Assembly: GCA_021199235.1 (NCBI GenBank)
Contig: JAJQIL010000156.1
Location: 1 to 34,045 of the forward strand
Origin: Lachnospiraceae bacterium
GTDB lineage: Bacteria > Bacillota > Clostridia > Lachnospirales > Lachnospiraceae
Length of the DNA stretch: 34,045 nucleotides
Direction: 5' to 3'
Below the pieces are notes generated by a model. The model had not been told where the DNA came from, made no database searches, and saw nothing but the letters and a program-made list of their open reading frames with translations. A program made the translations under genes and the position numbers. Positions 9,986 to 25,762 of the stretch are shown here, piece by piece (positions within the stretch are counted from its first letter, which is position 1; each line of letters begins with the position of its first letter).

Positions 9986-10012
9986 GTAACTGTTCAGTGC
10001 TTTCGCAGTTAC
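9986..10012 (-). repeat. Palindromic repeat copy 1 (core CTGAACAGTTACGAA, minus orientation)
   Basis: Read on the minus strand this is GTAACTGCGAAAG followed by CACTGAACAGTTAC, then GAAGGG leading into the RBS. It lies in the 5' untranslated region of the gene starting at 9968 and points toward it. See copies at 13749, 18415, 20254, 21034, 22634 and 25747. Confidence 0.7.
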
Positions 10013-10029
10013 TTCCTTTCCTTCGTTTT

Positions 10030-10050
10030 GTAACAGTTCAGAATGGTTAC
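10030..10050. repeat. Degenerate palindromic repeat copy
   Basis: GTAACAGTTCAG at the left and GGTTAC at the right keep the GTAAC...GTTAC ends of the family, but the interior is shortened. It is 17 bp from copy 1 and in the same leader. Confidence 0.45.
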
Positions 10051-10116
10051 ATTTTTGTATGTTTACTCGCCGCAGGAAATGTTATTTTGTCGTAATGTCC
10101 GGCAGTATTTGGCGAA

Positions 10117-10145
10117 AGTATAGCATTTTGGCGCCCTTATGTCCA
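10117..10145 (-). promoter_or_regulatory. Promoter of the secreted acidic protein gene
   Basis: On the minus strand TGGACA (10145-10140) and TATACT (10122-10117) are 17 bp apart. The resulting leader is about 140 nt and contains both palindromic repeats. Confidence 0.6.
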
Positions 10146-10244
10146 TAGAAGAAATCTGGAATCTTTTTTTTCATAGGAAACGACGTAAGAAAAAGTGTTT
10201 TTTTCGCTATAGGAAAATCTGGCGAAATCTGCGATAAATATTTC

Positions 10245-10273
10245 TTGAATTAAAAAGGGGCGGAGAGTACAAT
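10245..10273 (+). promoter_or_regulatory. Promoter of folC
   Basis: TTGAAT (10245-10250) and TACAAT (10268-10273) are 17 bp apart, about 50 bp before the folC start. Confidence 0.65.
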
Positions 10274-10323
10274 AGCGACAGCGCGTTTTGCCAGGCAGAG
10301 CTGCCGAAGGGAGAGAGCATTTG

Positions 10324-11760
10324 ATGAATTATACAGAAGCGGTGGATTATATAGAAAGTACACCGAAATTTACGAAGAAGAACGGGCCGGATAATACCCG
10401 CGAGCTGCTGGAGAGAATCGGTCATCCGGAACGGGAGATGAAGGTCATTCATGTGGCCGGAACCAATGGAAAAGGAAGCGTCTGCGCATTTCTGGCTTCG
10501 ATCCTTAAGAATGCCGGGAAGCATGTGGGGCTGTTTACTTCGCCGCATCTGGTGGAGATCACGGAGCGGTTTGAGATTGACGGGGAGCAGGTCTCGCATG
10601 AGACGTTTGCCCGGGCGCTGACACGCGTACTGGATGTGACGAAGGAAATGATCGCGGACGGGTTCGCGCATCCGGCGTATTTTGAACTGCTGTTTGCGGC
10701 CGGACTTCTGATTTTTAAGGAAGAAAAAGTCGAATATCTGGTGCTGGAGACCGGGCTGGGCGGGCGGCTTGACGCGACAAATCTCGTGGAGCATCCGATC
10801 GCCTGCGTGATTACGAGCATCAGTCTGGATCACATGGAATATCTGGGCGATACCGTGACAAAGATTGCCGGGGAAAAGGCAGGCATTATCAAGGAAGGCG
10901 TCCCCGTGGTCTATGACGGGCGGAATCCGGAGGCGGCCGCGGTGATCGCGAAGACAGCTGCTGACATGCACGCGCGCGCATACCGCTATGATGAGTCGAT
11001 GAGCCAAATACTGGGAAAAACGGATAAAAGCATTGATTTTCTGCTTGATTGCGGTTATGATGAAAAAATAAAAGTGACGGTGCCGTATCTGGCGCCGTAT
11101 CAGGTAGTAAACAGCTCGCTGGCGCTGATGGCGCTGCGGGCGATTGACCCGGAGCATTCAATCAGTACGGCACAGGCCGTGGAAGGGATTGCCGGAACAC
11201 GCTGGCCGGGCCGGATGGAGACTGTGCTGCCCGGCGTGGTGCTCGACGGCGCGCACAATGCGGACGGAATACAGGAATTTATCCGCACGGTGCAGAGCGT
11301 GCAGGGGAATACACGGCAGCCGGCGGACGGTGAGTCTGAACGGGAGCAGCCGCGCAGGGTGACGATTTTATTTTCCGCGGTATCGGATAAGGAATACGGG
11401 AAGATGATCCGCGAGATCTGCGAGGGCATACAGCTTTCCGCGGTGGTGGTGACACAGGTCGGAGGCTCCCGCGTTGTACCGGCAGAACGGCTCGCGGAGG
11501 CTTTCCGGATATGCCTGGACGGCTGTTCCGATACTTCCGCTGATTTTTCCGGCACGGGCGCTGCTGATCACGGGACAGACGAGGGATCTGCGCCGCGGAC
11601 AGATGCGAATCCGCAAATTCCCGTTTTGGTAAAGACGGATGTGCGGGAAGCGTTTGAGACGGCATTACGGTTAAAAGGGGACGGGATGCTGTTCTGCGCC
11701 GGATCACTGTATCTGGTGGGGGAGTTGAAGGCAATCCTGAAAGAAAAGCCTGCGTCATAG
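10324..11760 (+). CDS. folC: Folylpolyglutamate synthase / dihydrofolate synthase
   Basis: The 478-residue Mur-ligase-type enzyme adds glutamate to folates in the cytosol. The P-loop is at 46-52 (HVAGTNGKGSV). The folate-binding LETGLGGRLDATN follows, then HMEYLGDT, and the C-terminal domain begins with VLDGAHNADGI. The protein is longer than usual (about 430 aa). One reason is a Ser/Thr/Asp-rich insert around residues 398-425, before the final strands. The ATG at 10324 is preceded by AAGGGAGAG. A TTG at 10321 and an in-frame start at 10288 are less likely. A 17-bp-spaced promoter lies immediately upstream. Two small-protein genes follow after 47 bp in the same direction and may be co-transcribed. 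Confidence 0.93.
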   Translation: MNYTEAVDYIESTPKFTKKNGPDNTRELLERIGHPEREMKVIHVAGTNGKGSVCAFLASILKNAGKHVGLFTSPHLVEITERFEIDGEQVSHETFARALTRVLDVTKEMIADGFAHPAYFELLFAAGLLIFKEEKVEYLVLETGLGGRLDATNLVEHPIACVITSISLDHMEYLGDTVTKIAGEKAGIIKEGVPVVYDGRNPEAAAVIAKTAADMHARAYRYDESMSQILGKTDKSIDFLLDCGYDEKIKVTVPYLAPYQVVNSSLALMALRAIDPEHSISTAQAVEGIAGTRWPGRMETVLPGVVLDGAHNADGIQEFIRTVQSVQGNTRQPADGESEREQPRRVTILFSAVSDKEYGKMIREICEGIQLSAVVVTQVGGSRVVPAERLAEAFRICLDGCSDTSADFSGTGAADHGTDEGSAPRTDANPQIPVLVKTDVREAFETALRLKGDGMLFCAGSLYLVGELKAILKEKPAS

Positions 11761-11807
11761 ATCTGTGATGCATATCCGGGACAGGATATACGAGGAGGAG
11801 TATACAT

Positions 11808-11966
11808 ATGATTAATTATGAGGAGGAACTGAAAAAGTTCCATACCAGTATGGATGTCAATGAGGCTGAGGACGCGATCTACAGCCGTGACCTGACGGAT
11901 ATGAGCGACATCCTCAAGGAGATGCTGCGGGAAGAAAAGAAGAACAGAAAGCAGGGGAACCGATGA
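11808..11966 (+). CDS. Small acidic/basic helical protein (52 aa), coupled to the zinc-ribbon TPR gene
   Basis: GAGGAGGA at 11792-11799 precedes an ATG at 11808. The peptide MINYEEELKKFHTSM...REEKKNRKQGNR is predicted to be almost all helix: a repetitive acidic first half, the segment DLTDMSDILKEMLREEKK, and a basic end. Its stop overlaps the next start (ATGA at 11963-11966), which strongly suggests translational coupling. I do not recognise the family. A role as partner of the next protein is inferred from the overlap only. Confidence 0.75.
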   Translation: MINYEEELKKFHTSMDVNEAEDAIYSRDLTDMSDILKEMLREEKKNRKQGNR

Positions 11967-13582
11967 AATGTATTTACTGCAATACCCCTCTCGGTTCGTC
12001 TGACTACTGTTCGGGCTGCGGGGCGGATATTACAATTCAGAAGCGGATCGGGCGCATTTCGAATCTCCTTTACAATGAAGGACTGGAAAAGGCGCGCGTC
12101 AGGGATATGGAAGGAGCGATCACGTGTCTGAAGCGCAGCCTGAAGTTCTATAAAGCCAATACGGATGCCCGCAATCTGCTCGGCCTGTGTTACTATGAGA
12201 CCGGCGAAGCCGTTGCTGCGCTCTGCGAATGGGTCATCAGCAAAAACCTCCAGCCGGAGGACAATCTGGCCGATTATTTTATTGACCAGATGCAGAACAA
12301 TAAAAACAAACTGGATTCAATCAACCAGACCATCCGTAAATATAATCAGTCTGTCATGTATTGCCGGGAAGACAATGAGGACATGGCTATCATCCAGCTG
12401 AAAAAGGTCATCAACCGCAATCCGAGGCTGGTGAAGGCATATCAGCTGCTGGCTCTGCTGTATATGAAGCGGCAGGAGTACGGACGTTCGCGCAGGCTGC
12501 TCAAAAAGGCCATCCAGATTGACGCGACGAATACGACGACACTGCGCTATCTGCAGGAGATCGAGACGGCCACCGGCAAAGGCACGAACCTGAATCGCAG
12601 GCACAAACGCTATGAGAAGGAAGGCGAGGAAGAGCAGGTATCCGGGACGCTCCGGTATTTAAGCGGGAATGAAATGATCATTCAGCCCACGACGTTCCGC
12701 GACAGCTCGACAATTGCGACCTTTATCAATATTATTCTGGGAATCCTGCTGGGCGGCGCGATCGTGTGGTTTCTGATCGTACCGGCGAGCCGGCAGAATG
12801 CAAATGATAACGCGAATAAGCAGGTGACAGAAGCCAATGCAAAGTTTGCGTCCGTGCAGGTGCAGGCGGAGGAACTGCAGGAAGAGATCGACGGCTACGA
12901 GGAACAGATCGCGGAGGCCCAGGAAGACCGGGACGCGGCGCTTGCCAAAGCGGACAGCTACGATGAGCTTCTGGCGATCGCGGACCTTTATGTCAGCGGA
13001 GACGAATCAGAGGCGGCAGAGCAGCTGCTCGAGCTGAGCTCGGATGTATTTGAAGGCAATGCCCTGTCTCTGTATGAGTCTTTGAGCAGCGCGGTATCCG
13101 CCAGCCTGTTTACGGAGTACTATAACGCGGGCACGACGGCCTATGTACAGAAGGATTACGAGACCGCCGCGGAGAATCTGGCAAAAGCCGTGGAAGCGGA
13201 TCCGAACCGCGAGCAGTCGAAGCATTATGATGCGCTTCTGTATCTCGGGATGGCGTATTATTATCTGGGCGACCGGGACAGTGCGGATGAGATCTTCAAC
13301 CAGATCATCGAATACTATCCGTCTTATGCGTCAGTCGTTCAGGGATATATTTCCTCGTCCTCCTCGGACGGCGATACGTCCACGAATACGCTGGATTTAA
13401 GCGGACTCGGAGACGCGGCGACGGACGTCACGGCCGATACGACAGATACTACGGGCACCAGTACGGCCGATACGGGCGATGATATTACGATTTACGATGA
13501 CACCGCGACCTCCTCGGAGGTGGTGTGGACAGATCCGACGACCGGGCTGTCGTACGACGCGTCCGGAAATGTGATAGATTAG
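11963..13582 (+). CDS. Zinc-ribbon, TPR and coiled-coil membrane protein of unknown function
   Basis: The 539-residue protein has a clear multi-part layout. A zinc ribbon with C3, C6, C16 and C19 comes first. TPR-like helical repeats cover about 35-100 and 128-200, including AYQLLALLYMKRQEYGRSRRLL. A basic linker leads to one membrane helix (251-274). A coiled coil (about 280-332) comes next. A second TPR block (about 380-440) includes FTEYYNAGTTAYVQKDYETAAENL. The final Ser/Thr/Asp-rich tail is at 450-539. The N-terminal TPRs would be cytoplasmic and the C-terminal ones extracellular. Such proteins usually act as scaffolds. Start and coupling to the upstream small gene are fixed by the ATGA overlap. 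No catalytic motif is visible, and I do not assign a function. Confidence 0.8.
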   Translation: MKCIYCNTPLGSSDYCSGCGADITIQKRIGRISNLLYNEGLEKARVRDMEGAITCLKRSLKFYKANTDARNLLGLCYYETGEAVAALCEWVISKNLQPEDNLADYFIDQMQNNKNKLDSINQTIRKYNQSVMYCREDNEDMAIIQLKKVINRNPRLVKAYQLLALLYMKRQEYGRSRRLLKKAIQIDATNTTTLRYLQEIETATGKGTNLNRRHKRYEKEGEEEQVSGTLRYLSGNEMIIQPTTFRDSSTIATFINIILGILLGGAIVWFLIVPASRQNANDNANKQVTEANAKFASVQVQAEELQEEIDGYEEQIAEAQEDRDAALAKADSYDELLAIADLYVSGDESEAAEQLLELSSDVFEGNALSLYESLSSAVSASLFTEYYNAGTTAYVQKDYETAAENLAKAVEADPNREQSKHYDALLYLGMAYYYLGDRDSADEIFNQIIEYYPSYASVVQGYISSSSSDGDTSTNTLDLSGLGDAATDVTADTTDTTGTSTADTGDDITIYDDTATSSEVVWTDPTTGLSYDASGNVID

Positions 13583-13775
13583 TAACTATTCAGGACAGTA
13601 CCTCGCACTTGCTGCGAGGTACGTATGAAAACATAAATATTACAAGGGAAAATCCTTCGCCAGGACGGCATCCCGCACTTCGTACGGGATATGTCCCATC
13701 GCGGCGCTAAGCGGCAGCGGAGACGCGATTTTAAATGGATTTTCCCTCGTAACTGTGAAGGTACTGAACAGTTAC
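13582..13775 (+). repeat. Composite hairpin repeat element, long copy 1 (194 bp)
   Basis: The ends are near-perfect inverted repeats: GTAACTATTCAG at the left and CTGAACAGTTAC at the right. Inside are TACCTCGCA/TGCGAGGTA (13599-13621), the block GTATGAAAACATAAATAT, an outer stem GGGAAAATCC (13646-13655) with GGATTTTCCC (13737-13746), and an inner stem ATCCCG/CGGGAT (13670-13690). It starts on the stop codon of the preceding gene. The last 27 bp (13749-13775) are the palindromic repeat found elsewhere. No open frame here looks real. Confidence 0.75.
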
Positions 13776-13815
13776 GTAAATTAATTATTAACCAACCGAT
13801 AAACCCAAAAGTATG

Positions 13816-13850
13816 GGAGAGCGCAACGGAAGATCCGGCGCTCTCCTTTT
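13816..13850 (+). terminator. Terminator upstream of the spoIIA operon
   Basis: GGAGAGCGC (13816-13824) pairs with GCGCTCTCC (13838-13846), followed by TTTT. It ends only 30 bp before the spoIIAA start, so either it shields the operon from upstream transcription or it acts as an attenuator. I could not identify a convincing sigma-H promoter. Confidence 0.75.
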
Positions 13851-13880
13851 GCGTGCAAAACAGGAACAGGAGGGATTTTT

Positions 13881-14216
13881 ATGGATTCAGTATTTTCAAT
13901 CGCCGGAACGGTGATGACCGTACATCTGCCGGCGGAGATCGACCATCACACATCGGACCGGCTTTGCGCCGAGGCGGACAAACTGGTGCAAAGAAAACAT
14001 ATCCGCTGCATTGTTTTTGACTTTGCGGGAACCACATTTATGGACAGCTCCGGCATCGGCATGCTGATCGGCCGCTACAAGAGGATGCGTTTCATGGGCG
14101 GCACGGTGGCAGCGGTCAATGTCGGAGAGCGGATAAGGAAGATGCTTGAAGTCTCGGGTATCGGGAAAATCATGGATATTTATGAGGGAATGCCGTTGCG
14201 GACCCCGGCGTGCTGA
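13881..14216 (+). CDS. spoIIAA: Anti-sigma F factor antagonist SpoIIAA
   Basis: The 111-residue STAS-domain protein releases sigma F by binding SpoIIAB when unphosphorylated. The phosphorylation segment TTFMDSSGIGMLIGRYK is present, with S56/S57 as candidate targets. It continues with the typical VNVGERIRKMLEVSGI. AGGAGGGA precedes the ATG at 13881. It is first in the order spoIIAA-spoIIAB-sigF. Its phosphate would be removed by SpoIIE, encoded at 22706. The gap to spoIIAB (114 bp) is larger than in Bacillus, where the genes nearly touch. Confidence 0.93.
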   Translation: MDSVFSIAGTVMTVHLPAEIDHHTSDRLCAEADKLVQRKHIRCIVFDFAGTTFMDSSGIGMLIGRYKRMRFMGGTVAAVNVGERIRKMLEVSGIGKIMDIYEGMPLRTPAC

Positions 14217-14330
14217 AAGTATCACAATAAGAAGAACAGCAGCCGATAAGGCGCGGAGCAGTTATAAAGAATGGAATCCGGGTTTTAAGAAATGGAAAAA
14301 CCAGACACGGATTGAAAGGGGAGAATCAGG

Positions 14331-14933
14331 ATGCAGCAAAATGAAATGAAACTGGAATTTGACAGCCATTCCTGCAATGAGAGCTTTGCGCGGGTGACGG
14401 TTGCTGCGTTTATGACGCAGCTGAACCCGACGCTGGAAGAGGTGGCAGATGTGAAAACTGCCGTGTCCGAGGCGGTCACGAACGCGATCATTCATGCGTA
14501 TAAAAATGAATCTGTTGTAAAAAGCCGCTTTGTGAAAAGCGAAGATACAGCGGAAGAGGCGGGCAGGATATGGATTACCTGCCATATCCGGGACAACCTT
14601 CTGGAAGTGGAAGTGCGGGATACCGGCTGCGGCATCGCGGATGTAAAGCGCGCGATGGAGCCGTTCTTTTCGACAGCGGAAGAAAATGACCATTCGGGAT
14701 TGGGATTTGCGTTTATGGAAGCGTTTATGGATACGCTGGAGGTTGAATCTGCACCGGGAGAGGGCACCTGTGTGCGTATGACCAGAAGGATTGGAGGCGG
14801 CCGGCATTCGGAAAGTATATGCGGTAAAACAGATGCGTTTGATATGCTGCAGCCGGAGCAGGATGGAATGCCGCCAAAGAGCCAGTATGACGGAAACGAT
14901 GCCGGGAATATCCTGTTGTCAGATGGGCGGTAG
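14331..14933 (+). CDS. spoIIAB: Anti-sigma F factor / serine kinase SpoIIAB, with C-terminal extension
   Basis: The GHKL-type kinase binds sigma F and phosphorylates SpoIIAA. The N box (EAVTNAIIHAY), the G1 box (VRDTGCGI) and the G2 box (GLGFAFMEAF) are all present and in order. The canonical fold ends near residue 152 (VRMTRRI). This protein continues to 200 with a Gly/Asp/Asn-rich, disordered-looking tail, whereas the family is normally about 140-150 residues. An insert of roughly 10 residues around 58-75 (KSRFVKSEDTAEEAG) is also longer than usual. AAAGGGGAGAATC precedes the ATG. sigF begins 24 bp after the stop. Confidence 0.92.
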   Translation: MQQNEMKLEFDSHSCNESFARVTVAAFMTQLNPTLEEVADVKTAVSEAVTNAIIHAYKNESVVKSRFVKSEDTAEEAGRIWITCHIRDNLLEVEVRDTGCGIADVKRAMEPFFSTAEENDHSGLGFAFMEAFMDTLEVESAPGEGTCVRMTRRIGGGRHSESICGKTDAFDMLQPEQDGMPPKSQYDGNDAGNILLSDGR

Positions 14934-14957
14934 AAAAGGGAGATCGAGGACAGACGA

Positions 14958-15695
14958 ATGGAACAGACCCTTGCGTTGATCAGGAAAGCTCACGAGGGGG
15001 ATAAAGAGGCCAGAACGCAGCTGGCAGAGGAAAATATAGGACTGGTGTATACGGTTGTGCGCCGTTTTACGGGGCGAGGCTGTGAATATGAGGATCTGGT
15101 GCAGATCGGAAGCATCGGTCTTCTGAAAGCAATCGACAATTTTGACAGCTCTTTTGACGTGCGGTTTTCCACCTACGCGGTTCCGATGATCGCAGGGGAG
15201 ATCCGCCGTTTTCTGCGGGACGACGGAATGATCCGGGTGGGGCGGCTGCTGAAGGAAACGGCAGTACGGGCCATGCGCGCACGCGAGGAGCTGGAGCAGG
15301 ACGGCCAGACGGAACCGGCGATGGAGGAGCTTGCGCTTGCTGTTGGCGTCAGTCCGGAAGAGCTGGTGATGGCGTTGGAAGCCAGTTCTGACGTCGAATC
15401 CCTGAATCAGACGGTTTATCAGGGAGATGGTACGCCGGTGCTTCTGGAGGACCGGCTGCCGGACGAACGGGATCATCATGAAATTCTGCTTGATCATATG
15501 CTGCTTGACCAGCTTCTGAAAGCACTTGCGCCGGACGAGCGCAGACTGATCCGGATGCGTTATTTTGAAGATATGACGCAGGTGCAGACTGCTGCCTGCC
15601 TTGGCATGACACAGGTGCAGGTCTCCCGCGCGGAAAAACGGATCCTGCGCCGGATGCGGGAAGCGGCGGTGTGTAAGGATACATGGCAGCACTGA
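14958..15695 (+). CDS. sigF: RNA polymerase sporulation sigma factor SigF
   Basis: The 245-residue sigma-70-family factor directs early forespore transcription. Region 2 includes NIGLVYTVVRRF, YEDLVQIGSIGLLKAI and the -10 recognition segment RFSTYAVPMIAGEIRRFLRD (about 70-90). Region 3 has PAMEELALAVGVSPEEL. Region 4 ends with a helix-turn-helix, TQVQTAACLGMTQVQVSRAE, about 210-230. It is the third gene of the spoIIA operon and is held inactive by SpoIIAB. AAGGGAG precedes the ATG. No terminator is obvious directly after it; about 300 bp of non-coding DNA follow. Confidence 0.95.
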   Translation: MEQTLALIRKAHEGDKEARTQLAEENIGLVYTVVRRFTGRGCEYEDLVQIGSIGLLKAIDNFDSSFDVRFSTYAVPMIAGEIRRFLRDDGMIRVGRLLKETAVRAMRAREELEQDGQTEPAMEELALAVGVSPEELVMALEASSDVESLNQTVYQGDGTPVLLEDRLPDERDHHEILLDHMLLDQLLKALAPDERRLIRMRYFEDMTQVQTAACLGMTQVQVSRAEKRILRRMREAAVCKDTWQH

Positions 15696-15847
15696 GTACA
15701 GCAGAACAATGCATGGATTGAGACAGGTTGACCGCAATCCCATTGGTTTTAGATGAGGGGGAGTTCATAATAATATCTGCGATATGAAAATGGATTAAAA
15801 ATGGAATGAAATTGCAAAGAAAAGGATGTTTTATGGAAAATAAACGG

Positions 15848-15876
15848 TTGACATTTGGATAGACCGGTGATAAAAT
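15848..15876 (+). promoter_or_regulatory. Promoter of the HTH-Uma2 gene
   Basis: A perfect TTGACA (15848-15853) and TAAAAT (15871-15876) are 17 bp apart. The rest of the 15696-15992 gap shows nothing coding. Confidence 0.7.
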
Positions 15877-17045: not shown

Positions 17046-17112
17046 AATGGATGCCATCAGGCATCCATTTCGCAGCGTCTGCCAGCCGCAAAGCGGCTTC
17101 GGAATGGCAGAC
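17046..17112 (+). repeat. Two strong hairpins downstream of the Uma2 gene
   Basis: AATGGATGCC (17046-17055) and GGCATCCATT (17060-17069) form a 10-bp stem with a 4-nt loop. GTCTGCCA (17077-17084) and TGGCAGAC (17105-17112) close an outer stem around GCCGC-AAA-GCGGC (17085-17097) and TTCGGAA. The first could terminate the Uma2 transcript. The branched second structure is not a standard terminator. Confidence 0.55.
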
Positions 17113-17188
17113 GCGACTTGCCGCCGAGCGATAGCGAGGGGGCGTTACCATCTGACCGATGTCAGGCTGTCTAAGGGGAGGGCGCGGC

Positions 17189-18166
17189 ATGAACGACAGG
17201 GCTTTAAGGGTATTGGAGCAGTATGAACTGGAAGTGATCAGCACCAGGCGCGGACGGGGCTACTGGTATCTCGATACGTCCGCCGGATCAAGGATTTTGA
17301 GCGAATATGCAGGCACAGAGAACAGGGCACAGTTCCAGAATCGTGTGATGAGGGCGGTTTACGAAGGCGGTTACAGGAATGTAGATGAGATATTGCCCAA
17401 TAAAGAAGGGGCGCTGGTTTCCAGAGACTGGGAGGAGAAGCGCTATGTAGTGAAGAAATGGTATCCGGGCCGGGAGTGCGATCCGTCGAATGAGACGGAA
17501 GTGCTGAGGGCGGTGGAGAATCTGGCACGGCTGCACCGGCTGATGAGATTAGAGGAGGAAGATACCTGTTATGTCGCGCGGCCGCCTCTTGAGGAGCTGC
17601 GTGCCTGGAACGCGCAGCTGCGCAAAATCCGCACGTTTGTACGTACCCGGCGAAAAAGAAGCATGTTTGAACAGATGTTTCTGGATTCCTGTGAGCGATA
17701 TCTTGCGCAGGCAGCGGAAGCGGCTTCGCAGCTCTCACATGTAAGCGGCCTTCTGGAAGAATTTCGTGCGGAGCACAGCGGCTGCGTCTGCCATGGAGAT
17801 TACAGTCACCATCATATCCTGATCTGCGGCTATGAGATAGCGACGACGAATTTTGACTGCTGCCGCTTCGATTTTCAGGTGAATGATCTTTACCGCTTTA
17901 TGCGCAAAATTCTGGAAAAGCATGACTGGAACGCGCGTTTTGGCATGCATATGCTGGAAAGCTATGGCCGGGTGCAGCCGCTTTCGCATACGGAACGCAG
18001 GCTGCTCTATGTGCGGATGCTGTATCCGGAGAGGTTCCGGAAGCTTGCCGGTACGTATTATGGCGGAAATAAGGCCTGGATCTCCCGGCAGTATTCGGAT
18101 AAGCTGGTGAAGATGAACCGACAGGAAAAGGCAAGGGAGGCGTTTCTGAAGCAGCTGGAGACATGA
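17189..18166 (+). CDS. CotS-family spore coat kinase-like protein
   Basis: The 325-residue protein has the kinase-like fold of CotS/YsxE spore coat proteins. A lysine-bearing strand (YVVKKWYPG, about 86-94) is followed by the helix AVENLARLHRLM and the catalytic-loop-like CVCHGDYSHHHILI (HGD at 202-204). The later motif, normally DFD, reads NFD (221-223), so the metal-binding aspartate is asparagine. VNDLYRFMRKILEKHDW closes the family signature. AAGGGGAGGG precedes the ATG at 17189; an in-frame start at 17159 lacks an RBS. It stands alone between two structured intergenic regions. Mother-cell expression during coat assembly is expected from the family but no sigma-E or sigma-K promoter was secure. 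Confidence 0.82.
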   Translation: MNDRALRVLEQYELEVISTRRGRGYWYLDTSAGSRILSEYAGTENRAQFQNRVMRAVYEGGYRNVDEILPNKEGALVSRDWEEKRYVVKKWYPGRECDPSNETEVLRAVENLARLHRLMRLEEEDTCYVARPPLEELRAWNAQLRKIRTFVRTRRKRSMFEQMFLDSCERYLAQAAEAASQLSHVSGLLEEFRAEHSGCVCHGDYSHHHILICGYEIATTNFDCCRFDFQVNDLYRFMRKILEKHDWNARFGMHMLESYGRVQPLSHTERRLLYVRMLYPERFRKLAGTYYGGNKAWISRQYSDKLVKMNRQEKAREAFLKQLET

Positions 18167-18414: not shown

Positions 18415-18435
18415 GCAACTGTTCAGAACAGTTAC
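18415..18435 (+). repeat. Palindromic repeat copy 3, in the pgcA leader
   Basis: AACTGTTC-A-GAACAGTT (18417-18433) is a perfect compact palindrome, followed by ACGAAG. The right half matches the shared core GAACAGTTACGAA and points toward the downstream gene. Confidence 0.65.
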
Positions 18436-20243: not shown

Positions 20244-20253
20244 TATGGAAAAT

Positions 20254-20303
20254 ACTGAACAGTTACGAATTGGCTTGACAAACGATTTATTACATTATAT
20301 AAA
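20254..20303 (+). promoter_or_regulatory. Promoter of the HU gene with adjoining half-palindrome repeat
   Basis: TTGACA (20276-20281) and TATAAA (20298-20303) are 16 bp apart. Just upstream, TACTGAACAGTTACGAA (20254-20270) is the right half of the dispersed palindromic repeat, 6 bp from the -35 element. Confidence 0.7.
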
Positions 20304-20357
20304 TAGTAGCGGGCACGAGATTGTATAAAATACAGATTTTTCACAGGAGGAATTAAA

Positions 20358-20633
20358 ATGAACAGGACTGAACTGGTTGCAGCAATTGCTGAGAAGACCG
20401 AGTTATCAAAGAAGGATGCAGAGAAGGCTCTTAAGGCGTTTACGGAAGTAGTAGCGGAGCAGCTTAAGAGCGGTGAGAAGATTCAGCTGGTTGGCTTTGG
20501 CACGTTTGAAGTAGCTACCCGCCCGGAGAGAGAAGGAAGAAATCCGCAGACTGGCGAGACAATGAAGATCGCGGCTTCCAAAACTCCGAAGTTCAAAGCC
20601 GGAAAAGCGCTGAAGGACGTTGTGAACGGCTGA
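20358..20633 (+). CDS. hup: DNA-binding protein HU
   Basis: The 91-residue histone-like protein binds and bends DNA as a dimer and organises the nucleoid. The N-terminal helices (MNRTELVAAIAEKTELSKKD) lead to the family signature GFGTFEVATRPEREGRNPQTG, which spans the beta arm with its proline-bearing tip, and the end is FKAGKALKDVV. AGGAGG precedes the ATG. The S4-domain gene starts 4 bp after its stop. In Bacillus relatives an HU gene likewise appears at the head of the yabO cluster in many clostridia. Confidence 0.95.
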   Translation: MNRTELVAAIAEKTELSKKDAEKALKAFTEVVAEQLKSGEKIQLVGFGTFEVATRPEREGRNPQTGETMKIAASKTPKFKAGKALKDVVNG

Positions 20634-20637
20634 TCCG

Positions 20638-20877
20638 ATGCGTCTGGACAAATATCTGAAGGTGTCGAGACTGATCAGGCGCAGGACTGTGGCGAATGAA
20701 GCATGTGACGCAGGGCGTGTGCTGGTCAACGGCAAGGCGGCGAAAGCATCCGTAGCCGTGAAGCCGGGAGATGTGATAGAGATTGGTTTTGGCTCCAGAA
20801 CCGTGAAGGTGGAAGTGGTATCCGTGGCGGAAACTGTCAAAAAAGAGGCAGCCGCGGAGATGTATCGCTATCTGTAG
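20638..20877 (+). CDS. rqcP: S4-domain RNA-binding protein RqcP (YabO)
   Basis: This 79-residue protein is almost entirely an S4 RNA-binding domain: MRLDKYLKVSRLIRRRTVAN, ACDAGRVLVNGKAAK and VKPGDVIEIGFGSR. In Bacillus, RqcP works with RqcH in ribosome-associated quality control, adding alanine tails to stalled chains on the 50S subunit. It is co-directional with HU, 4 bp away. The HU stop region (GGCTGATCCG) overlaps its translation start zone, so coupling is likely. The synteny with yabP, yabQ and divIC supports the assignment over Hsp15. Confidence 0.9.
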   Translation: MRLDKYLKVSRLIRRRTVANEACDAGRVLVNGKAAKASVAVKPGDVIEIGFGSRTVKVEVVSVAETVKKEAAAEMYRYL

Positions 20878-20889
20878 ATGCAACGGTGG

Positions 20890-21060
20890 CTATTCAGGAC
20901 AGTACCTCGCACTCGCTGCGAGGTACGTATGAAAACATATATTTTACAGGAAAAAGTCCCATCGCGCAGCGATTTTAAATGGACTTTTTCCCTCGCCGGG
21001 ATGGCATCCCGCACAGAGTGCGGGATAAGTCCCGTAACTGTGAAGATACTGAACAGTTAC
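20890..21060 (+). repeat. Composite hairpin repeat element, long copy 2 (171 bp)
   Basis: It shares with 13582-13775 the left block (CTATTCAGGACAGTACC, TACCTCGCA/TGCGAGGTA, GTATGAAAACATA) and the 27-bp palindromic right end (21034-21060). The outer stem is GGAAAAAGTCC (20949-20959) with GGACTTTTTCC, so both arms changed together relative to copy 1. The stem ATCCCGCAC/GTGCGGGAT lies outside that outer stem here, but inside it in copy 1. No coding frame looks real. Confidence 0.75.
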
Positions 21061-21109
21061 CTGTGAGGATACGGAGCAGGTACAGACTTTCGACAAAATT
21101 GATATGAAA

Positions 21110-21160
21110 AACAGGCCGGACATTTTTCCGAGAGGATTGATGTTCAGCCTGTTTTCTTTT
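21110..21160 (+). terminator. Probable terminator of the HU-rqcP unit
   Basis: AACAGGCCGGACAT (21110-21123) pairs with ATGTTCAGCCTGTT (21140-21153), with one mismatch and one G-U pair. A 16-nt loop separates the arms, and TTCTTTT follows. Confidence 0.6.
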
Positions 21161-21223
21161 ATGTTCTTAAAGCCGGGGTTTTTTCATATATTTAGAGCAA
21201 GGCGATTGCATCCGGAGAACGGG

Positions 21224-21502
21224 ATGGAAGAAAAAAAGAATGAAAGACCACACAGTATTTCGTGGAGAGACAGAGCAGAGGGTGTCGTGACAGGCGTGAC
21301 AGACGTCCTTTCCTTTGACGAAAATACCGTAGTGCTGCAGACCGAACAGGGAATGCTGACAGTAAAGGGGAAAGAGCTTCATATCGGTCGGCTGGAGCTC
21401 TCTTCGGGCGAAGTAAAAATGCACGGCAGTGTAGATGGTATCTTTTATTCCGGCGGCAATCCTGCAAAAAAAGGCAGCCTTATAAGGAGGATGCTGCAAT
21501 GA
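21224..21502 (+). CDS. yabP: Sporulation protein YabP
   Basis: The 92-residue protein matches YabP, which is needed for spore cortex formation. Its core VVTGVTDVLSFDENTVVLQT, then GMLTVKGKELHIGRLELSSGEV and VDGIFYSG, are typical. I place the start at 21224 (GGAGAACGGG upstream); an earlier in-frame ATG at 21104 falls inside the terminator stem. The last codons overlap the yabQ start (ATGA at 21499-21502). The gene should be expressed in the mother cell, but no sigma-E promoter could be fixed. Confidence 0.88.
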   Translation: MEEKKNERPHSISWRDRAEGVVTGVTDVLSFDENTVVLQTEQGMLTVKGKELHIGRLELSSGEVKMHGSVDGIFYSGGNPAKKGSLIRRMLQ

Positions 21503-21861
21503 GCAGTGTGGTACGGCAGGAGACTGCCGTATTTTTATTTTCCATTCTGCACGGCGCTGTGCTGACGATTCTTTATGATATCCTGCGCGCACTGCGAAGA
21601 AGTGTGCGGCATTCTCTGGCTGTGCTTTCTCTGGAGGATTTTTTCTACTGGATGCTGGCAGGGCTTCTGACATTTGGTCTGGCTTTTCAGGAGATGGATG
21701 GAGTGATCCGCGGTTACGCCGCCGCAGGAATGCTGCTGGGATTTCTGCTGTATCATTTTACGCTTAGTTCCGGCTTCGTGACAGTACTGAGCACGTTGTT
21801 TCGGGGGATAGCAAGGGTGCTGCGGCGAATTGCGGCACTGCGGTTTCATAAAAAGGGGTGA
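21499..21861 (+). CDS. yabQ: Spore cortex biosynthesis protein YabQ
   Basis: The 120-residue membrane protein has hydrophobic segments at about 8-28, 47-64 and 69-89. The early FLFSILHGAVLTILYDILR and LEDFFYW motifs are typical of YabQ, which localises to the outer forespore membrane and is required for cortex. It overlaps yabP by ATGA, and AAGGAGG at 21484-21490 serves as RBS. The third segment is followed by a basic C-terminus (RVLRRIAALRFHKKG). The family is somewhat variable in length. Confidence 0.88.
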   Translation: MSSVVRQETAVFLFSILHGAVLTILYDILRALRRSVRHSLAVLSLEDFFYWMLAGLLTFGLAFQEMDGVIRGYAAAGMLLGFLLYHFTLSSGFVTVLSTLFRGIARVLRRIAALRFHKKG

Positions 21862-21950
21862 ACAGCAGGCCGCAGCCTGGTCTTCGCTGCCGCTCCGGTC
21901 GGTGCTGTTCAGAACTGTTGAAAAATTTTGTAAATTTTGCAAGAAAAGAA

Positions 21951-21979
21951 TTGAAATCAGGCGAAAAAAGGCATACAAT
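21951..21979 (+). promoter_or_regulatory. Promoter of divIC
   Basis: TTGAAA (21951-21956) and TACAAT (21974-21979) are 17 bp apart. This gives divIC a vegetative promoter separate from the sporulation genes upstream. The symmetric GTTCAGAAC at 21908-21916 resembles the centre of the dispersed palindrome. Confidence 0.7.
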
Positions 21980-22041
21980 GTCAGATACAGGTTTTGCGTT
22001 CGTGAGGGGAAGAAAATTCGTATCATAAGGGGTAGATGAAG

Positions 22042-22344
22042 ATGGCAGGACGGAAAAAACAGCTCAGCACGGGGAATCGCCTTGGAATGTATGCAATCGC
22101 GGCGATCATTGCAGTGCTGCTTACAGTGCTTCTGGTGCAGAGCAGGTCGCTTCGCACGGAGAATGCGGCGTATGCGGCGCAGGTGGATGATCTGCAGCAG
22201 CAGCTTCAGGATGAGGAGGTTCGCGCGGAAGAGATTGATGAACTGAGTGAATACCTGAATTCTGATGAATATGTTGAAAAGCTGGCCAGAGAAAAGCTTG
22301 GGCTGGTGTATGAGGACGATGTGATTTATCGTGCGGCAAACTGA
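22042..22344 (+). CDS. divIC: Septum formation initiator DivIC/FtsB-like
   Basis: The 100-residue bitopic protein has a basic N-terminus, one membrane helix (about 14-35), then a coiled coil (SLRTENAAYAAQVDDLQQQL). It ends with YVEKLAREKLGLVYEDD, the family hallmark. DivIC acts with FtsL and DivIB in the division ring. AAGGGG at 22027-22032 fits the ATG at 22042 better than the in-frame ATG at 22036, which would add only two residues. The place between yabQ and spoIIE is the conserved Bacillus position. Confidence 0.9.
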   Translation: MAGRKKQLSTGNRLGMYAIAAIIAVLLTVLLVQSRSLRTENAAYAAQVDDLQQQLQDEEVRAEEIDELSEYLNSDEYVEKLAREKLGLVYEDDVIYRAAN

Positions 22345-22364
22345 ATGACTGTGTTATTTCCTGA

Positions 22365-22397
22365 CAGGGCTCGGATTTGATTCCGGGCTCTGTTTTT
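22365..22397 (+). terminator. Terminator of divIC
   Basis: CAGGGCTCGGA (22365-22375) pairs with TCCGGGCTCTG (22382-22392) using two G-U pairs, followed by TTTTT. Confidence 0.75.
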
Positions 22398-22404
22398 ATG
22401 CGCA

Positions 22405-22569
22405 GGGGCGCGTAAGGAATTTAGCAGCTAAAGCTGCACGCGCCCCGCGCGGCGAGTAGGGGACAAGTCTCCCTACTCGATTGCACACGGCCGGGCAAGG
22501 AATTTTGCGGCTAAAGCCGCACCCGGCCGGCGCGGGCGGATAGGGGAGAGAACTCCCCCTATCCGATTG
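22405..22569 (+). repeat. Tandem pair of two-hairpin modules with compensatory changes
   Basis: Module 1 (22405-22483) has outer stem GGGGCGCGT/ACGCGCCCC, single strand AAGGAATTT, inner hairpin GCAGC-TAAA-GCTGC, then hairpin CGAGTAGGG/CCCTACTCG and ATTG. Module 2 (22488-22569) has CGGCCGGG/CCCGGCCG, AAGGAATTT, GCGGC-TAAA-GCCGC, then CGGATAGGGG/CCCCTATCCG and ATTG. The unpaired parts are the same. The paired parts differ on both sides but keep pairing. The second module ends in ATTGATTTTTT and may also terminate transcription. The function is unknown. Confidence 0.75.
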
Positions 22570-22590
22570 ATTTTTTAGAAAACAGACCGC

Positions 22591-22625
22591 TTTTGACAGA
22601 TTCTGCGGCAATCCGGTGTTATGAT
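22591..22625 (+). promoter_or_regulatory. Candidate Spo0A-activated promoter of spoIIE
   Basis: A perfect TTGACA (22593-22598) and TATGAT (22620-22625) are 21 bp apart. The Bacillus spoIIE and spoIIG promoters have a similarly long 21-22 bp spacer and need Spo0A. TTTGACA (22592-22598) is also a 6/7 match to the inverted 0A box TTCGACA, overlapping the -35 element as in Bacillus. Spo0A binding is inferred. Confidence 0.55.
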
Positions 22626-22633
22626 GAAGTGCC

Positions 22634-22660
22634 ATAACTGTGCAGGGACGGAACAGTTAT
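22634..22660 (+). repeat. Palindromic repeat copy in the spoIIE leader
   Basis: ATAACTGTGCAG and GGAACAGTTAT keep the 27-bp length of copies at 13749 and 21034. The outer pair G-C has become A-T on both sides, so the ends still pair. It lies between the -10 element and the RBS. Confidence 0.65.
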
Positions 22661-22705
22661 GAGAATCGGTAACGGCACAGGTGCGGAAAGAGGGGAGGAC
22701 GAACG

Positions 22706-24112
22706 ATGAGCGAGTGGGTACAGCCGGAGCAGGAGCAGATGAAAAAGTACGCGGAGGCTTTTTTTTCGCTGGCAGAGATGTATGAGAAGCTTCCCTGTCA
22801 GAAGGAAAGGCTGGGAGATGAGGAACTGCGGGCACTGCTGGAGGATGTGAAGGACCGGGCATGCGCGGGCTGTTCATATGAGGAGCATTGCTGGCAAGAC
22901 GCGTATTATGAGAACTGCAGGACATGGTATGAGCTTTTGAGGGAAATGGAACGAAGCGGTGATTTTTCCGTCATGCAAAGGATGCAGCTCAGGAAATCTT
23001 GCGAGCGCCCGGGACAGCTGATGCTGGCACTCCGGACAGGCTATGAGGAGGCGCGCACGAATCTGCTCTGGAGCAACCGTCTGCTGGAGCAGCGGCAGGC
23101 CGCGGGTGAGCAGATTGCGCGTACTGCGGAGCTTTTTGAGAGAACGGCGGAAGGGTTTGCTTCCCGGCCGCAGCTGGAAGCCCGGATTACGGGAAAGCTG
23201 AGGAGAGAGCTGCATTTTCTGCGTGTGGAACTGGATCAGATCCGGGCATTCCGGCAGGAGCCGGACAGGCAGGAATATTATCTGGTACTGCATATGGCGG
23301 GAAAGGGGCGGCTGCACTTTGACAGGGGAAGTGTGGTATCCGCCCGTTCGGTGGCGGAGGCGCTTTCCGACTGCTGCGGGGAGAGGATGCGCCCGGCCTT
23401 CAACTGCCGCGGGGCAGTTACCCCGGAGCCGATGCTTTTTCATTTTGTGCCGGATACAAAATATCAGTTTTTCTGCGGTGTTTCACATATCACAAAGGCC
23501 GGAGAGCTGGTGTCCGGCGACAATTTCACCATGCTTTGGCAGGATACGGGTAAAGTCGTGATGAGCCTCGCGGATGGCATGGGGTCCGGCACAGCGGCGA
23601 ATCTGGAAAGCGGGAAGGTGATCGAACTGCTGGAACAGTTTCTGACTGCGGGGTTTCCTCAGGAGACGGCGGTGCGGCTTCTGAACTCAGGCATACTGCT
23701 GCAGAATAACAGTCCGGTTTTTTCGACAATTGACTTATGTATGGTTGACTTATATAATGCCAGATGTGATATGATGAAATCAGGAGCTGCTCCGTCATTT
23801 ATCCGGAAAGACGGGCAGATTGAAGTGATCCGCGCGGATACGTTTCCGACCGGCGTGCTGCAGAAGTCGGATTACGAGAGCCTGCATCGGCAACTGGAGC
23901 CGGGGACAAACATCATCATGATGACGGATGGTGTTCTGGATGCGATGCCGGGGGAGGATCATGAGCAGGCGATGGCTGAGCTGATCGTTCGCCTGACGAC
24001 GCGCAACGCCCAGGAGTATGCGAGACGTCTGATGGAGCGGGTATATCTGATGCAGGAACTGAATGCGCGGGACGATATGACGATACTGGTCGGGACGATC
24101 TGGGAGAAGTGA
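22706..24112 (+). CDS. spoIIE: Stage II sporulation protein E, short form without membrane region (PPM phosphatase)
   Basis: The phosphatase dephosphorylates SpoIIAA and so activates sigma F after asymmetric division. The C-terminal PP2C-type domain (about 250-468) has the metal-site motifs SGDNFTMLW, LADGMGSGTAAN, MTDGVLDA and DDMTIL. Residues 1-250 hold a Cys-containing segment (CAGCSYEEHCW, about 53-63) and helices that match the region just before the phosphatase in longer SpoIIE. The protein is 468 residues, whereas Bacillus SpoIIE is about 827 with ten membrane helices at the N-terminus. No hydrophobic segment is present here or in the upstream 360 bp. AGGGGAGGAC precedes the ATG at 22706. 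Position between divIC and tilS agrees with Bacillus. Confidence 0.88.
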   Translation: MSEWVQPEQEQMKKYAEAFFSLAEMYEKLPCQKERLGDEELRALLEDVKDRACAGCSYEEHCWQDAYYENCRTWYELLREMERSGDFSVMQRMQLRKSCERPGQLMLALRTGYEEARTNLLWSNRLLEQRQAAGEQIARTAELFERTAEGFASRPQLEARITGKLRRELHFLRVELDQIRAFRQEPDRQEYYLVLHMAGKGRLHFDRGSVVSARSVAEALSDCCGERMRPAFNCRGAVTPEPMLFHFVPDTKYQFFCGVSHITKAGELVSGDNFTMLWQDTGKVVMSLADGMGSGTAANLESGKVIELLEQFLTAGFPQETAVRLLNSGILLQNNSPVFSTIDLCMVDLYNARCDMMKSGAAPSFIRKDGQIEVIRADTFPTGVLQKSDYESLHRQLEPGTNIIMMTDGVLDAMPGEDHEQAMAELIVRLTTRNAQEYARRLMERVYLMQELNARDDMTILVGTIWEK

Positions 24113-24184
24113 CCTGAGACCGGGAATGGCCTGTGGCTGGAGTGTCAGTTCGGCAGAAGAATTTTGGCGGGAGGCATATAGGGC

Positions 24185-25702
24185 ATGGACGATTTGATTC
24201 AAACTGTTTTTCACACAATCAAGGAATACCATATGATCGAAACGGGGATGCGCGTGATCGCCGGTGTCTCGGGCGGCGCGGATTCCATCTGCCTGCTGTA
24301 TGCGCTCCGGCAGTACCGCCGGGAGATTCCTTTTGAATTGCTTGTGGTACATGTGGAGCATGGACTGCGCGGACAGGAAAGCCTGGACGATGCTGCCTTT
24401 GTTCAGAAGCTGTGCGCCGAATGGGAGATTCCGTGCCGTGTGGAGACGGCTGCGGTGACGCAGAGAGCAGACAGGGAAGGCCTGTCTGTTGAGGAAGCAG
24501 CCCGTGCGGAGCGCTACCGTATTTTTGAGGAAACGGGCAGGGAATGGCATGCCGACCGGATTGCTGTGGCGCACAATCGGAACGATCAGGCAGAGACGGT
24601 GCTCTGGAATCTGGCCCGCGGCAGCTCTTTAAGAGGGCTGGGCGGGATTCGTCCCGTGCAGGGGAAGCTGATCCGCCCGCTGCTTTTTACGGATCGGAAC
24701 GATATAGAAGCATACCTGCAGAAAGCTGGACTTGACTGGCGGACGGACCGCACTAATCTGGAGACGGACTATACGAGGAACCGGATACGTCTTTCTCTGC
24801 TCCCACAGATGGAAAAAGATCTGAACGCGCAGGCGTCGCGGCATATCGCGGAAGCGGCGGACAGACTCCGCGGCGTGCAGGACTATCTTGACCGGGTGAC
24901 GGACGAGGCCGCCGGGCGCTGTATCGCCGTGGAGAACGGGGATGCGGACGAGGCCGCCGGGCGCTGTATCGTTGCGGACGGTTTTGGGCCGGGATGTTCC
25001 GTAGTGATCCGGCTGGAAGCCTATAAAAAAGAGGAAGCCCTGATCCGGCAGGAACTCCTGAAACGTGCGGTTGAGCTGTGTGCGGACGAAAATAAAAAAA
25101 GCGGCTTAAAAGACATCGGCGCGGTACATATTCATATGCTTGAAGAACTTGCGGATATGGACTGCGGGAAACGCTGCAATCTGCCCGGAGGTATTTGCGC
25201 TGTGCGGGAGGATGGGATCCTGCGGTTTATGAGGCACAGGGGGGCGGCAGGAATGAGGATGGACTCCGCAAGGGCTGGCAGAAGCTCAGCCAGCCTTATC
25301 CTGCCGGATTGTGATAATGGTCCGGAAACCGGCAGGATTTTCGCCGGCATTTCCGTGACTGCAGAGCTGCTTTCCAATACGCCGGAGCTAAAAAAATATT
25401 TTTTGGAAGAAAAAAAGTATACGAAATGGATTTCCTATGATACAATAAAAAGTAATTTGCTGTTGCGGACCAGGCGGCCGGGAGACTACCTCGTGGTGAA
25501 CGCTGAGGGCGGGAAGAAAAAGCTGAAGGACTATCTGATCGATCAGAAGATTCCGCGGGATAAGCGGGATGGGATTCTGCTGCTGGCAGACGGCTCCCAT
25601 ATCCTCTGGGTGGTCGGATGGCGGCTCAGTGAGGCCGCAAAGGTCACGGATGAGACGCGGCAGGTGTTGAAGGTTGCTCTGACGGGCGATGGTATTTCAT
25701 AA
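24185..25702 (+). CDS. tilS: tRNA(Ile)-lysidine synthase
   Basis: The 505-residue enzyme adds lysine to C34 of the CAU-anticodon isoleucine tRNA, so that AUA is read correctly. The N-terminal PP-loop is at 29-34 (VSGGADSICLLYAL). HVEHGLRGQESLDDAAF, AHNRNDQAETVLWNLARG, GIRPVQGKLIRPLL and TDRTNLETDYTRNRIR follow in the expected order. A C-terminal TilS_C domain ends the protein (LKDYLIDQKIPRDKRDG, WVVGWRLSE). A 15-residue in-frame duplication lies near 239-263 (DEAAGRCI repeated). GGGAGG precedes the ATG at 24185. The order spoIIE-tilS-hpt-ftsH matches Bacillus. Confidence 0.94.
   Translation: MDDLIQTVFHTIKEYHMIETGMRVIAGVSGGADSICLLYALRQYRREIPFELLVVHVEHGLRGQESLDDAAFVQKLCAEWEIPCRVETAAVTQRADREGLSVEEAARAERYRIFEETGREWHADRIAVAHNRNDQAETVLWNLARGSSLRGLGGIRPVQGKLIRPLLFTDRNDIEAYLQKAGLDWRTDRTNLETDYTRNRIRLSLLPQMEKDLNAQASRHIAEAADRLRGVQDYLDRVTDEAAGRCIAVENGDADEAAGRCIVADGFGPGCSVVIRLEAYKKEEALIRQELLKRAVELCADENKKSGLKDIGAVHIHMLEELADMDCGKRCNLPGGICAVREDGILRFMRHRGAAGMRMDSARAGRSSASLILPDCDNGPETGRIFAGISVTAELLSNTPELKKYFLEEKKYTKWISYDTIKSNLLLRTRRPGDYLVVNAEGGKKKLKDYLIDQKIPRDKRDGILLLADGSHILWVVGWRLSEAAKVTDETRQVLKVALTGDGIS
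24900..24971 (+). repeat. Direct repeat inside tilS, 45-bp period
   Basis: A 27-bp sequence beginning CGGACGAGGCCGCC occurs at 24900-24926 and again at 24945-24971. The 45-bp spacing keeps the frame and repeats DEAAGRCI in the protein. Confidence 0.85.
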
Positions 25703-25746
25703 ATTCGTACCCGAAGGAGCGTAGATCACATCAGGATAATTATTAA

Positions 25747-25762
25747 GGCACTGAACAGTTAC
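25747..25762 (+). repeat. Half-palindrome repeat copy just upstream of hpt
   Basis: GGCACTGAACAGTTAC is followed by GAATCAGGAGA, so the shared core CTGAACAGTTACGAA runs straight into the hpt RBS. Confidence 0.65.

What the first reader, a model, noticed from the sequence alone, without database searches (positions are those of the whole stretch)
9986..25762. Dispersed palindromic element that always points toward the next gene
The sequence CTGAACAGTTAC, usually followed by GAA, recurs in intergenic DNA at 9986 (minus), 13749, 18415, 20254, 21034, 22634 and 25747. Full copies are 27-bp palindromes (GTAACTGT...ACAGTTAC). At 22634 both outer bases change together and still pair. In all seven cases the asymmetric right end faces the downstream gene, including the only minus-strand gene (start 9968). 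Several lie between a clear promoter and the RBS (9986, 18415, 22634, and next to the hpt RBS at 25747). None is seen in 1-9.9 kb. This could be a regulator-binding site, a 5'-UTR RNA element or a REP-like mobile repeat. The consistent orientation argues for a function tied to transcription or translation of the following gene.
Basis: seen in the sequence. Interest (0 to 1): 0.75.

Follow-up and report, generated by a model that had tools for sequence, protein, structure and literature searches.

The report
Tiny IS66-type mobile palindrome, Lachnospiraceae
The repeated palindrome is a very small jumping DNA element of gut bacteria whose ends match a known class of transposon; it tends to face the next gene, in good part because of the kind of DNA it inserts into.

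Summary
The motif is the right end of a non-autonomous mobile element (MITE): 161 copies (<=3 mismatches to the 27-mer; reversed control 0) in this 3.47-Mb Lachnospiraceae genome. It occurs alone (27 bp) and as the right end of a longer form (mostly 132-136 bp; left end GTAACTATTCAG, two covarying hairpins, then the 27-mer). Both are flanked by 8-bp direct repeats, also in other genera, and some copies have empty orthologous sites in a close relative. The ends equal the consensus of autonomous IS66-family, ISBst12-group elements (9 delimited here; near GTAACTRYTCAG, 8-bp duplications). This draft genome shows no IS66 transposase; the relative G008 keeps a remnant. Orientation towards the next gene is real (70 of 88 copies between co-directional genes; 58 of 70 in G008) and partly predicted by a strand-asymmetric, C-poor target. 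An RNA role is not supported (no sense-strand G-U excess; no Rfam match at gathering score). RAYT/REP membership fails. Open: whether the 27-bp form moves by itself or arises by deletion.

The parts
9986..10012 (-). solo 27-bp copy (GTAACTGCGAAAGCACTGAACAGTTAC), flanks match 6 of 8 (gaaaggaa/gaagggat)
10030..10050 (-). related 21-bp palindrome remnant, no convincing target duplication (4 of 8)
13582..13775 (+). long form, 194 bp, outer left end GTAACTATTCAG, hairpins with an extra module, 27-mer right end; target duplication 6 of 8 (atagatta/gtaaatta); in relative G008 only a short element-like remnant (GTTCAGAACAGC) is at this site
13749..13775 (+). 27-bp palindromic right end of the long copy (exact consensus)
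18415..18435 (+). 21-bp version GCAACTGTTCAGAACAGTTAC, flanks match 5 of 8; not at this site in G008; a 27-mer lies here in G014
20255..20266 (+). right-end remnant; G008 has a fuller copy plus a partial tandem copy here
20886..21060 (+). long form with decayed left end (GTGGCTATTCAG), no clear target duplication left; shared with G008, not at this site in G014 and G013
20993..21033 (+). about 41-bp hairpin module present in this copy but not in the G008 orthologue (edges depend on the alignment)
21061..21083 (+). degenerate tandem 27-mer-like copy
22634..22660 (+). 27-bp copy with paired outer changes (ATAAC...GTTAT); flanks match 3 of 8
25736..25762 (+). decayed 27-bp copy, flanks match 6 of 8 (acatcagg/gaatcagg)
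31612..31690 (+). left-half remnant of the long form (left end GTATCTGTTCAG plus hairpin 1)

Best explanation
A family of miniature, non-autonomous transposable elements with the ends of the ISBst12 group of the IS66 family. A transposase supplied in trans (inferred, not shown) recognises GTAACT(A/G)TTCAG ends and inserts the element with a staggered cut that duplicates 8 bp (duplication shown). It goes mainly into intergenic, C-poor, A-rich sites led by G (shown statistically). Two forms exist: a long form with two variable hairpins, and a 27-bp form that is the palindromic right end on its own. Orientation towards the next gene follows in good part from the strand asymmetry of the target, with perhaps some loss of opposite copies by selection (inferred).
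For: 8-bp direct repeats flank the 27-mer: 12 of 121 perfect against 0.00014 expected, with 0-2 of 121 at each other length from 4 to 12 bp; 7 of 78 perfect in other Lachnospiraceae and Clostridiales contigs, control 0. Of 282 copies, 79 are solo with >=6 of 8 (null 0.85%) and 115 long with the duplication (>=5 of 8) outside the whole long unit. Filled and empty orthologous sites: solo at L388 against L049, solo at L037 against L393, long at L407 against L035. ISBst12-group IS66 elements delimited in plasmid records (Geobacillus, Anoxybacillus, Planococcus, Nostoc, Deinococcus, Chlorohelix) and one viral contig: 9 of 10 inspected gave ends, all 9 with perfect 8-bp duplications; 7 of 18 ends fit GTAACTRYTCAG exactly, the other 11 differ by 1-2 bases; 4 ends are exactly GTAACTATTCAG and one exactly GTAACTGTTCAG (several of these elements are close relatives of one another). 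Published ISDge4 ends GTGACTACTCAGCA/GTAACTGCTCAGCA with 8-bp repeat (PMC12898284, passages). Relative G008 holds a C-terminal IS66 remnant followed about 80 bases after its stop by GTGAATAGTAAC, 10 of 12 to the end (24 of 2000 shuffles reach this; looked for after seeing it).
Against: No IS66 transposase found in this genome (TnpB; PF03050, a model that scores two ISBst12 transposases at 1e-50 and 1e-64), and no intact autonomous element with these ends in 2.85 Mb of fetched loci, overlaps included. The inner left arm of the 27-mer, GTAACTGTGAAG, departs from the ISBst12 consensus at positions 9-10. 88 of 282 copies show neither form's duplication. The target models leave part of the orientation bias unexplained.
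Confidence: 0.86

Rival explanations
1. The 27-bp form is not itself mobile: the long form inserts, then slippage between the direct repeats GTAACTAT (outer) and GTAACTGT (inner), helped by the hairpins, deletes the left part and leaves the 27-mer with its target duplication.
For: The two 8-bp left arms are direct repeats flanking hairpins; other internal deletion sizes exist (11 of 115 long copies are 45-96 bp); solo copies show the same orientation bias as long ones (24:4 and 22:5 in G000).
Against: At orthologous G000/G008 sites with flanks at least 80% identical (35 rows one way, 34 the other), 7 long and 5 solo sites keep the same length (7 and 4 the other way), no long-to-solo change is seen, and one lineage-specific solo is found in each genome (small numbers). 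Hybrid left arms expected from slippage are rare: position-5 T in 3 of 79 solos against 22 of 115 outer left ends (the solo set is partly chosen as exact 27-mers, so this is weak).
Confidence: 0.4
2. A REP/REPIN-type repeat moved by a RAYT tyrosine transposase.
For: Short palindrome, high copy number, intergenic.
Against: 8-bp target duplications; the only Y1 transposase matches in this genome (C83:90224-90511, two pieces) have no copy of the palindrome in the fetched loci L031/L032; the end is GTAA, not the GTAG tag of REPs described in PMC3733652 (passages).
Confidence: 0.02
3. A 5'-UTR RNA element or regulator-binding site selected in place upstream of genes.
For: Orientation bias; G000 copies with a downstream sense gene lie at a median of about 60 bp before the called start; covarying stems (16 of 29 pairs with both-side changes).
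Against: Covariation is strand-symmetric: of 100 long copies the antisense fold is more stable in 61 and the sense fold in 37, and G-U pairs are 250 sense, 277 antisense; no Rfam match at gathering score; copies are present or absent at orthologous sites in a close relative; copies also lie between divergent and convergent genes (15 and 5 in each genome); copies identical to the consensus are already biased (48:15 pooled over both genomes).
Confidence: 0.05
4. Orientation is imposed by transcription or by purging of opposite insertions rather than by target sequence.
For: An 8-bp target model predicts only 0.54-0.61 and the non-circular 40-bp model 0.69, against 0.80 and 0.83 observed; where genes oppose the local G-rich strand, 7 copies follow the genes and 0 the strand.
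Against: The bias is present in copies identical to the consensus; the target model is trained on only 49 sites and may be too weak; the circular version, trained on all 133 sites, reaches 0.86.
Confidence: 0.35

Closest known systems
IS66 family, ISBst12 group (e.g. ISDge4 of Deinococcus geothermalis; IS66-like element of Geobacillus plasmid pHTA426)
   Same: Ends near GTAACTRYTCAG, 8-bp target duplication; ISDge4 also has A at position 7 of one end and G at the other
   Different: The nine delimited here are 1454-1895 bp with a transposase gene; ours are 27-236 bp without a gene, and the right end is a near-palindrome
Classical IS66 elements of Lachnospiraceae (L413, L423, L465, L467, L469, L471, L473, L474)
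   Same: GTAA at the tip and perfect 8-bp duplication
   Different: Ends continue GTAAGCGTCAAAT or similar; outside GTAA the match to our ends is not better than chance (p 0.08 for the right end, 0.28 for the left)
Bacterial MITEs such as QMITE1 of Coxiella or Chunjie (PMC10969869, passages)
   Same: Non-autonomous, TIRs, target duplications, size variants; QMITE1 is described down to 39 bp
   Different: Here a 27-bp form is of the same order of frequency as the long form and is exactly one end of it
Small dispersed repeats of cyanobacteria, Elhai et al. 2008
   Same: Similar size and apparent mobility (paper not held; recalled, and cited in PMC3116915 and PMC2884548)
   Different: No comparison of sequence or target duplication was possible here
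REP/REPIN with RAYT (PMC3116915, PMC3733652, passages)
   Same: Short intergenic palindromes in >100 copies
   Different: No RAYT neighbour found, no GTAG tag, 8-bp target duplication

Membership tests
MITE of the IS66 family, ISBst12 group | Terminal inverted repeats near GTAACTRYTCAG | tested here: met
   Outer left GTAACTATTCAG (consensus of 115 long copies) and right GTAACTGTTCAG equal ends found in delimited ISBst12-group elements
MITE of the IS66 family, ISBst12 group | 8-bp target duplication | tested here: met
MITE of the IS66 family, ISBst12 group | Short, no transposase gene, intergenic | tested here: met
   27-236 bp; 1 of 115 G000 copies and 0 of 98 G008 copies inside a called gene
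MITE of the IS66 family, ISBst12 group | (usual, not defining) autonomous partner with the same ends in the same genome | tested here: not met
   No PF03050 match in G000, a draft 95% complete; in G008 only a remnant with a decayed end was seen
MITE of the IS66 family, ISBst12 group | Transposition by that transposase | not testable with these tools
   Needs a bench assay
REP/REPIN-RAYT | RAYT gene flanked by the repeat | tested here: not met
REP/REPIN-RAYT | GTAG or CGTC tag | tested here: not met
   Ends are GTAA/TTAC (tags from PMC3733652)
cis-regulatory RNA | Stem covariation with G-U tolerated on the transcribed strand | tested here: not met
   no sense-strand excess
cis-regulatory RNA | Match to a described family | tested here: not met
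   Searches (window; four loci): no family covers an element at its gathering score; one sub-threshold mir-90 match in L149
Cyanobacterial small dispersed repeats | Sequence or mechanism in common | not tested
   Paper not held

The most novel reading that the evidence does not exclude
The 27-bp palindrome, two IS66-type ends back to back with three bases between the arms, is a complete transposable unit that multiplies by itself. It would be one of the smallest DNA transposons known, and would force a model in which one transposase complex works on two overlapping ends or on an extruded hairpin.
Probability: 0.4. Interest if true: 0.7.

Novelty: new variant of a known kind. Interest (0 to 1): 0.47.

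Why it matters
It explains what look like conserved promoter palindromes, up to more than a hundred per genome in some gut Lachnospiraceae, as insertions, so motif-based regulon predictions there should mask them. It links an orphan MITE family to a named transposase group, gives presence/absence markers, and supplies a natural system for asking how small a DNA transposon can be and why insertions face genes.

Tried and rejected
Classical IS66 as parent: no TnpB or PF03050 match in this genome, and the tips of eight delimited Lachnospiraceae IS66 elements differ beyond GTAA. RAYT parent: rejected. De novo search for an autonomous element with these ends and >=7 of 8 duplication over 400-6000 bp in 2.85 Mb of loci: 7 pairs, none convincing. 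Right ends outside 27-mers in 12 genomes: 30 loci fetched, only the 110 bases before the end were read, further hairpin elements and no sign of a gene end. GTAACWRTTCAGRACAG with up to 1 mismatch in four named genomes: found in 1. Other transposase families (IS256, ISL3, IS1595, IS6) were not searched. Plasmid collection with the long form: no match; phage collection: 4 unannotated faecal 'Bacteriophage sp.' records, not followed up; viral contigs with the exact 27-mer: 0; viral contigs with GTAACWRTTCAGRACAG: 22 stretches, not inspected beyond the pair scan. Slippage hybrids: inconclusive. RNA reading by covariation alone: covariation is strong but strand-symmetric; quasi-palindrome correction during replication (recalled mechanism) could also produce it. 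Literature: searches listed no description of this element; one search covered the letters themselves and its 16 papers were judged unrelated by title and abstract start only. Papers seen, passages only: PMC10969869, PMC3733652, PMC3116915, PMC2884548, PMC11946415, PMC12898284, PMC8024623, PMC10017437; Elhai 2008 not held (recalled).
Full report
Observation. The 12-mer and its palindromic 27-bp extension are real and far beyond chance: 16 places with up to 2 mismatches in the window against 1.13 expected, 118 exact 12-mers in the 3.47-Mb genome and 161 27-mers GTAACTGTGAAGGTACTGAACAGTTAC with up to 3 mismatches, 34 exact; the reversed control gives 0. Coordinates need the small corrections given in the observation check.

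Mobility. I fetched stretches around the 100 listed of the 161 copies; a scan of them and the window gave 122 copies with up to 5 mismatches. In 121 with enough flank, the last 8 bases before the 27-mer repeat the first 8 after it perfectly in 12 (expected 0.00014 per copy), mean identity 0.50 against 0.26 for mismatched flanks; at each other length from 4 to 12 only 0-2 copies match perfectly and mean identity stays near its control.

Two forms. Many copies without a duplication at the 27-mer are the right end of a longer unit that begins with GTAACTATTCAG; there the 8-bp duplication lies outside the whole unit. Of 282 copies classified (122 from this genome, 160 from elsewhere, the latter partly chosen as exact 27-mers), 79 are solo (at least 6 of 8; null 0.85%), 115 long (at least 5 of 8) and 88 neither. 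Long copies run from 45 to 236 bp; 67 of 115 are 132-136 bp and 11 are 45-96 bp.

Presence and absence. In the syntenic relative G008 (about 92% identical over its main blocks, less elsewhere) the long copy at 20886-21060 is shared, while G014 and G013 lack it; at 13582-13775 G008 has only a short element-like remnant, and G014 and G013 have short remnants there too. For 115 copies of G000 against the fetched G008 stretches, both flanks were found for 39, and for 36 of 98 in the other direction. With flanks at least 80% identical there are 35 and 34 rows. First direction: same length 7 long, 5 solo, 5 unclassified; shorter in G008 3 long, 1 solo, 3 unclassified; longer 3 solo, 8 unclassified. 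Reverse: same length 7 long, 4 solo, 6 unclassified; shorter in G000 4 long, 1 solo, 3 unclassified; longer 4 long, 2 solo, 3 unclassified. Three shorter cases read as clean empty sites: solo L388 against L049, solo L037 against L393, long L407 against L035. The longer rows of solo copies hold no long form, and no long copy faces a solo 27-mer, so no long-to-solo change was seen. Several rows are messy because the flanks diverge.

Parent. The genome has no IS66 TnpB match and no IS66 DDE transposase match. Eight classical IS66 elements of other Lachnospiraceae that I could delimit have GTAA tips and perfect 8-bp duplications but otherwise different ends. The lead came from a paper on ISDge4, an ISBst12-group IS66 element with ends GTGACTACTCAGCA and GTAACTGCTCAGCA and an 8-bp repeat (PMC12898284, passages). 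I then delimited elements with related transposases: pHTA426 of Geobacillus, 1635 bp, ends GTATCTATTCAGCC and GTAACTATTCAGCC, duplication GACGAGTT perfect, and eight of nine further loci, all eight with perfect 8-bp duplications (L480 gave none). Of the 18 ends, 7 fit GTAACTRYTCAG exactly and 11 differ by one or two bases; four equal our outer left end letter for letter and one (L477, a viral contig) our right end. L478 and L479 are nearly the same element, and L476, L477 and L485 are close kin, so the ends are not independent. A random 12-mer fits GTAACTRYTCAG with probability 2.4e-7. G008 keeps a C-terminal transposase remnant (34% identical over 82 residues) with a decayed end, 10 of 12, about 80 bases after its stop; 24 of 2000 shuffles do as well. 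Pfam PF03050 scores two ISBst12 transposases strongly, so its absence from this draft genome (95% complete) is meaningful though not absolute.

Hairpins. An alignment of 31 of 57 non-redundant long forms gives three hairpins, the last being the 27-mer; 16 of 29 pairs show changes on both sides. Symmetric variants of the 27-mer exist in other genera: GTATC...GATAC in G395, G450, G341 and G484, and GTAACTAT...ATAGTTAC in 5 of the 10 listed places of G380. In L441 the outer left end stays GTAACTGTTCAG while both arms of the 27-mer changed, so the right end is kept as a palindrome in its own right. Folding 100 long copies on both strands shows no sense-strand preference, which argues for DNA-level structure or replication-based palindrome repair, not RNA.

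Orientation. With a home-made gene caller, copies between co-directional genes face the downstream gene in 70 of 88 cases in G000 and 58 of 70 in G008 (the two genomes share some sites, so they are not independent). Left out of these counts: in G000 1 inside a gene, 20 between divergent or convergent genes and 6 without a neighbour on one side (of 115); in G008 20 and 8 (of 98). Copies identical to the consensus are biased too (48 of 63 pooled). The target is asymmetric: G is the first duplicated base in 59% of 133 sites and C is rare around the site. Target models predict 0.54-0.61 (8 bp) and, trained on 49 sites outside the sense class, 0.69 (40 bp); the circular version trained on all sites reaches 0.86. 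Target choice therefore explains much, perhaps not all. In stretches over 12 kb, 7 copies follow genes against the G-rich strand and 0 the reverse, so replication direction is a poor explanation.

Distribution. 27-mers (up to 2 mismatches) occur in 23 of 144 genomes: this one, 18 of 46 further same-genus genomes, 4 of 42 from other genera of the family, and 0 of 55 of other families of the order. In the family sample, 35 of 397 genomes and 32 of 334 genera carry them with up to 3 mismatches. The highest counts are 187 copies in G008 and 187 in G380.

Verdict. An orphan, high-copy IS66/ISBst12-type MITE family with an unusually small 27-bp form. The kind is known; the assignment, the two-form architecture and the measured orientation bias were not found in print by the searches listed under Tried and rejected.

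Noticed in passing
window 17071-17153 (+): GA-cis RNA (RF02987), 53.4 bits against a gathering score of 34.7, upstream of the gene called at 17189.
   Followed up: no
window 13653-13697, 20993-21033; also L154, L163, L189, L300: A hairpin module (TCGCC..GGCATCCCGCAC..GTGCGGGATA..TCCC, with variants) sits inside long copies at different positions and is lacking from an orthologous copy in G008, as if hairpin modules are gained and lost inside the element.
   Followed up: partly
G000:C26:38515-38587, L009, L296, L303, L309: A second miniature element with the same kind of ends (GTAACWGTTCAG...) and a different inner hairpin (CAGCAGGCC/GGCCTGCTG type).
   Followed up: no
G000:C89 about 5600-5730 and C31 about 32280-32360: Tandem or stacked arrays of decayed 27-mers.
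   Followed up: no
G008 contig ends (e.g. C15, C54, C68, C95): Several contigs end 21-28 bases after a 27-mer, so these repeats seem to break short-read assemblies.
   Followed up: no
G000:C83:90224-90511: A Y1 (IS200-like) transposase in two pieces at a contig end, with no copy of the palindrome in the fetched flanks.
   Followed up: partly
MT836459, MT839789, MT837311, MT835858: Four unannotated faecal 'Bacteriophage sp.' records hold parts of the long form; phage carriage or host DNA.
   Followed up: no
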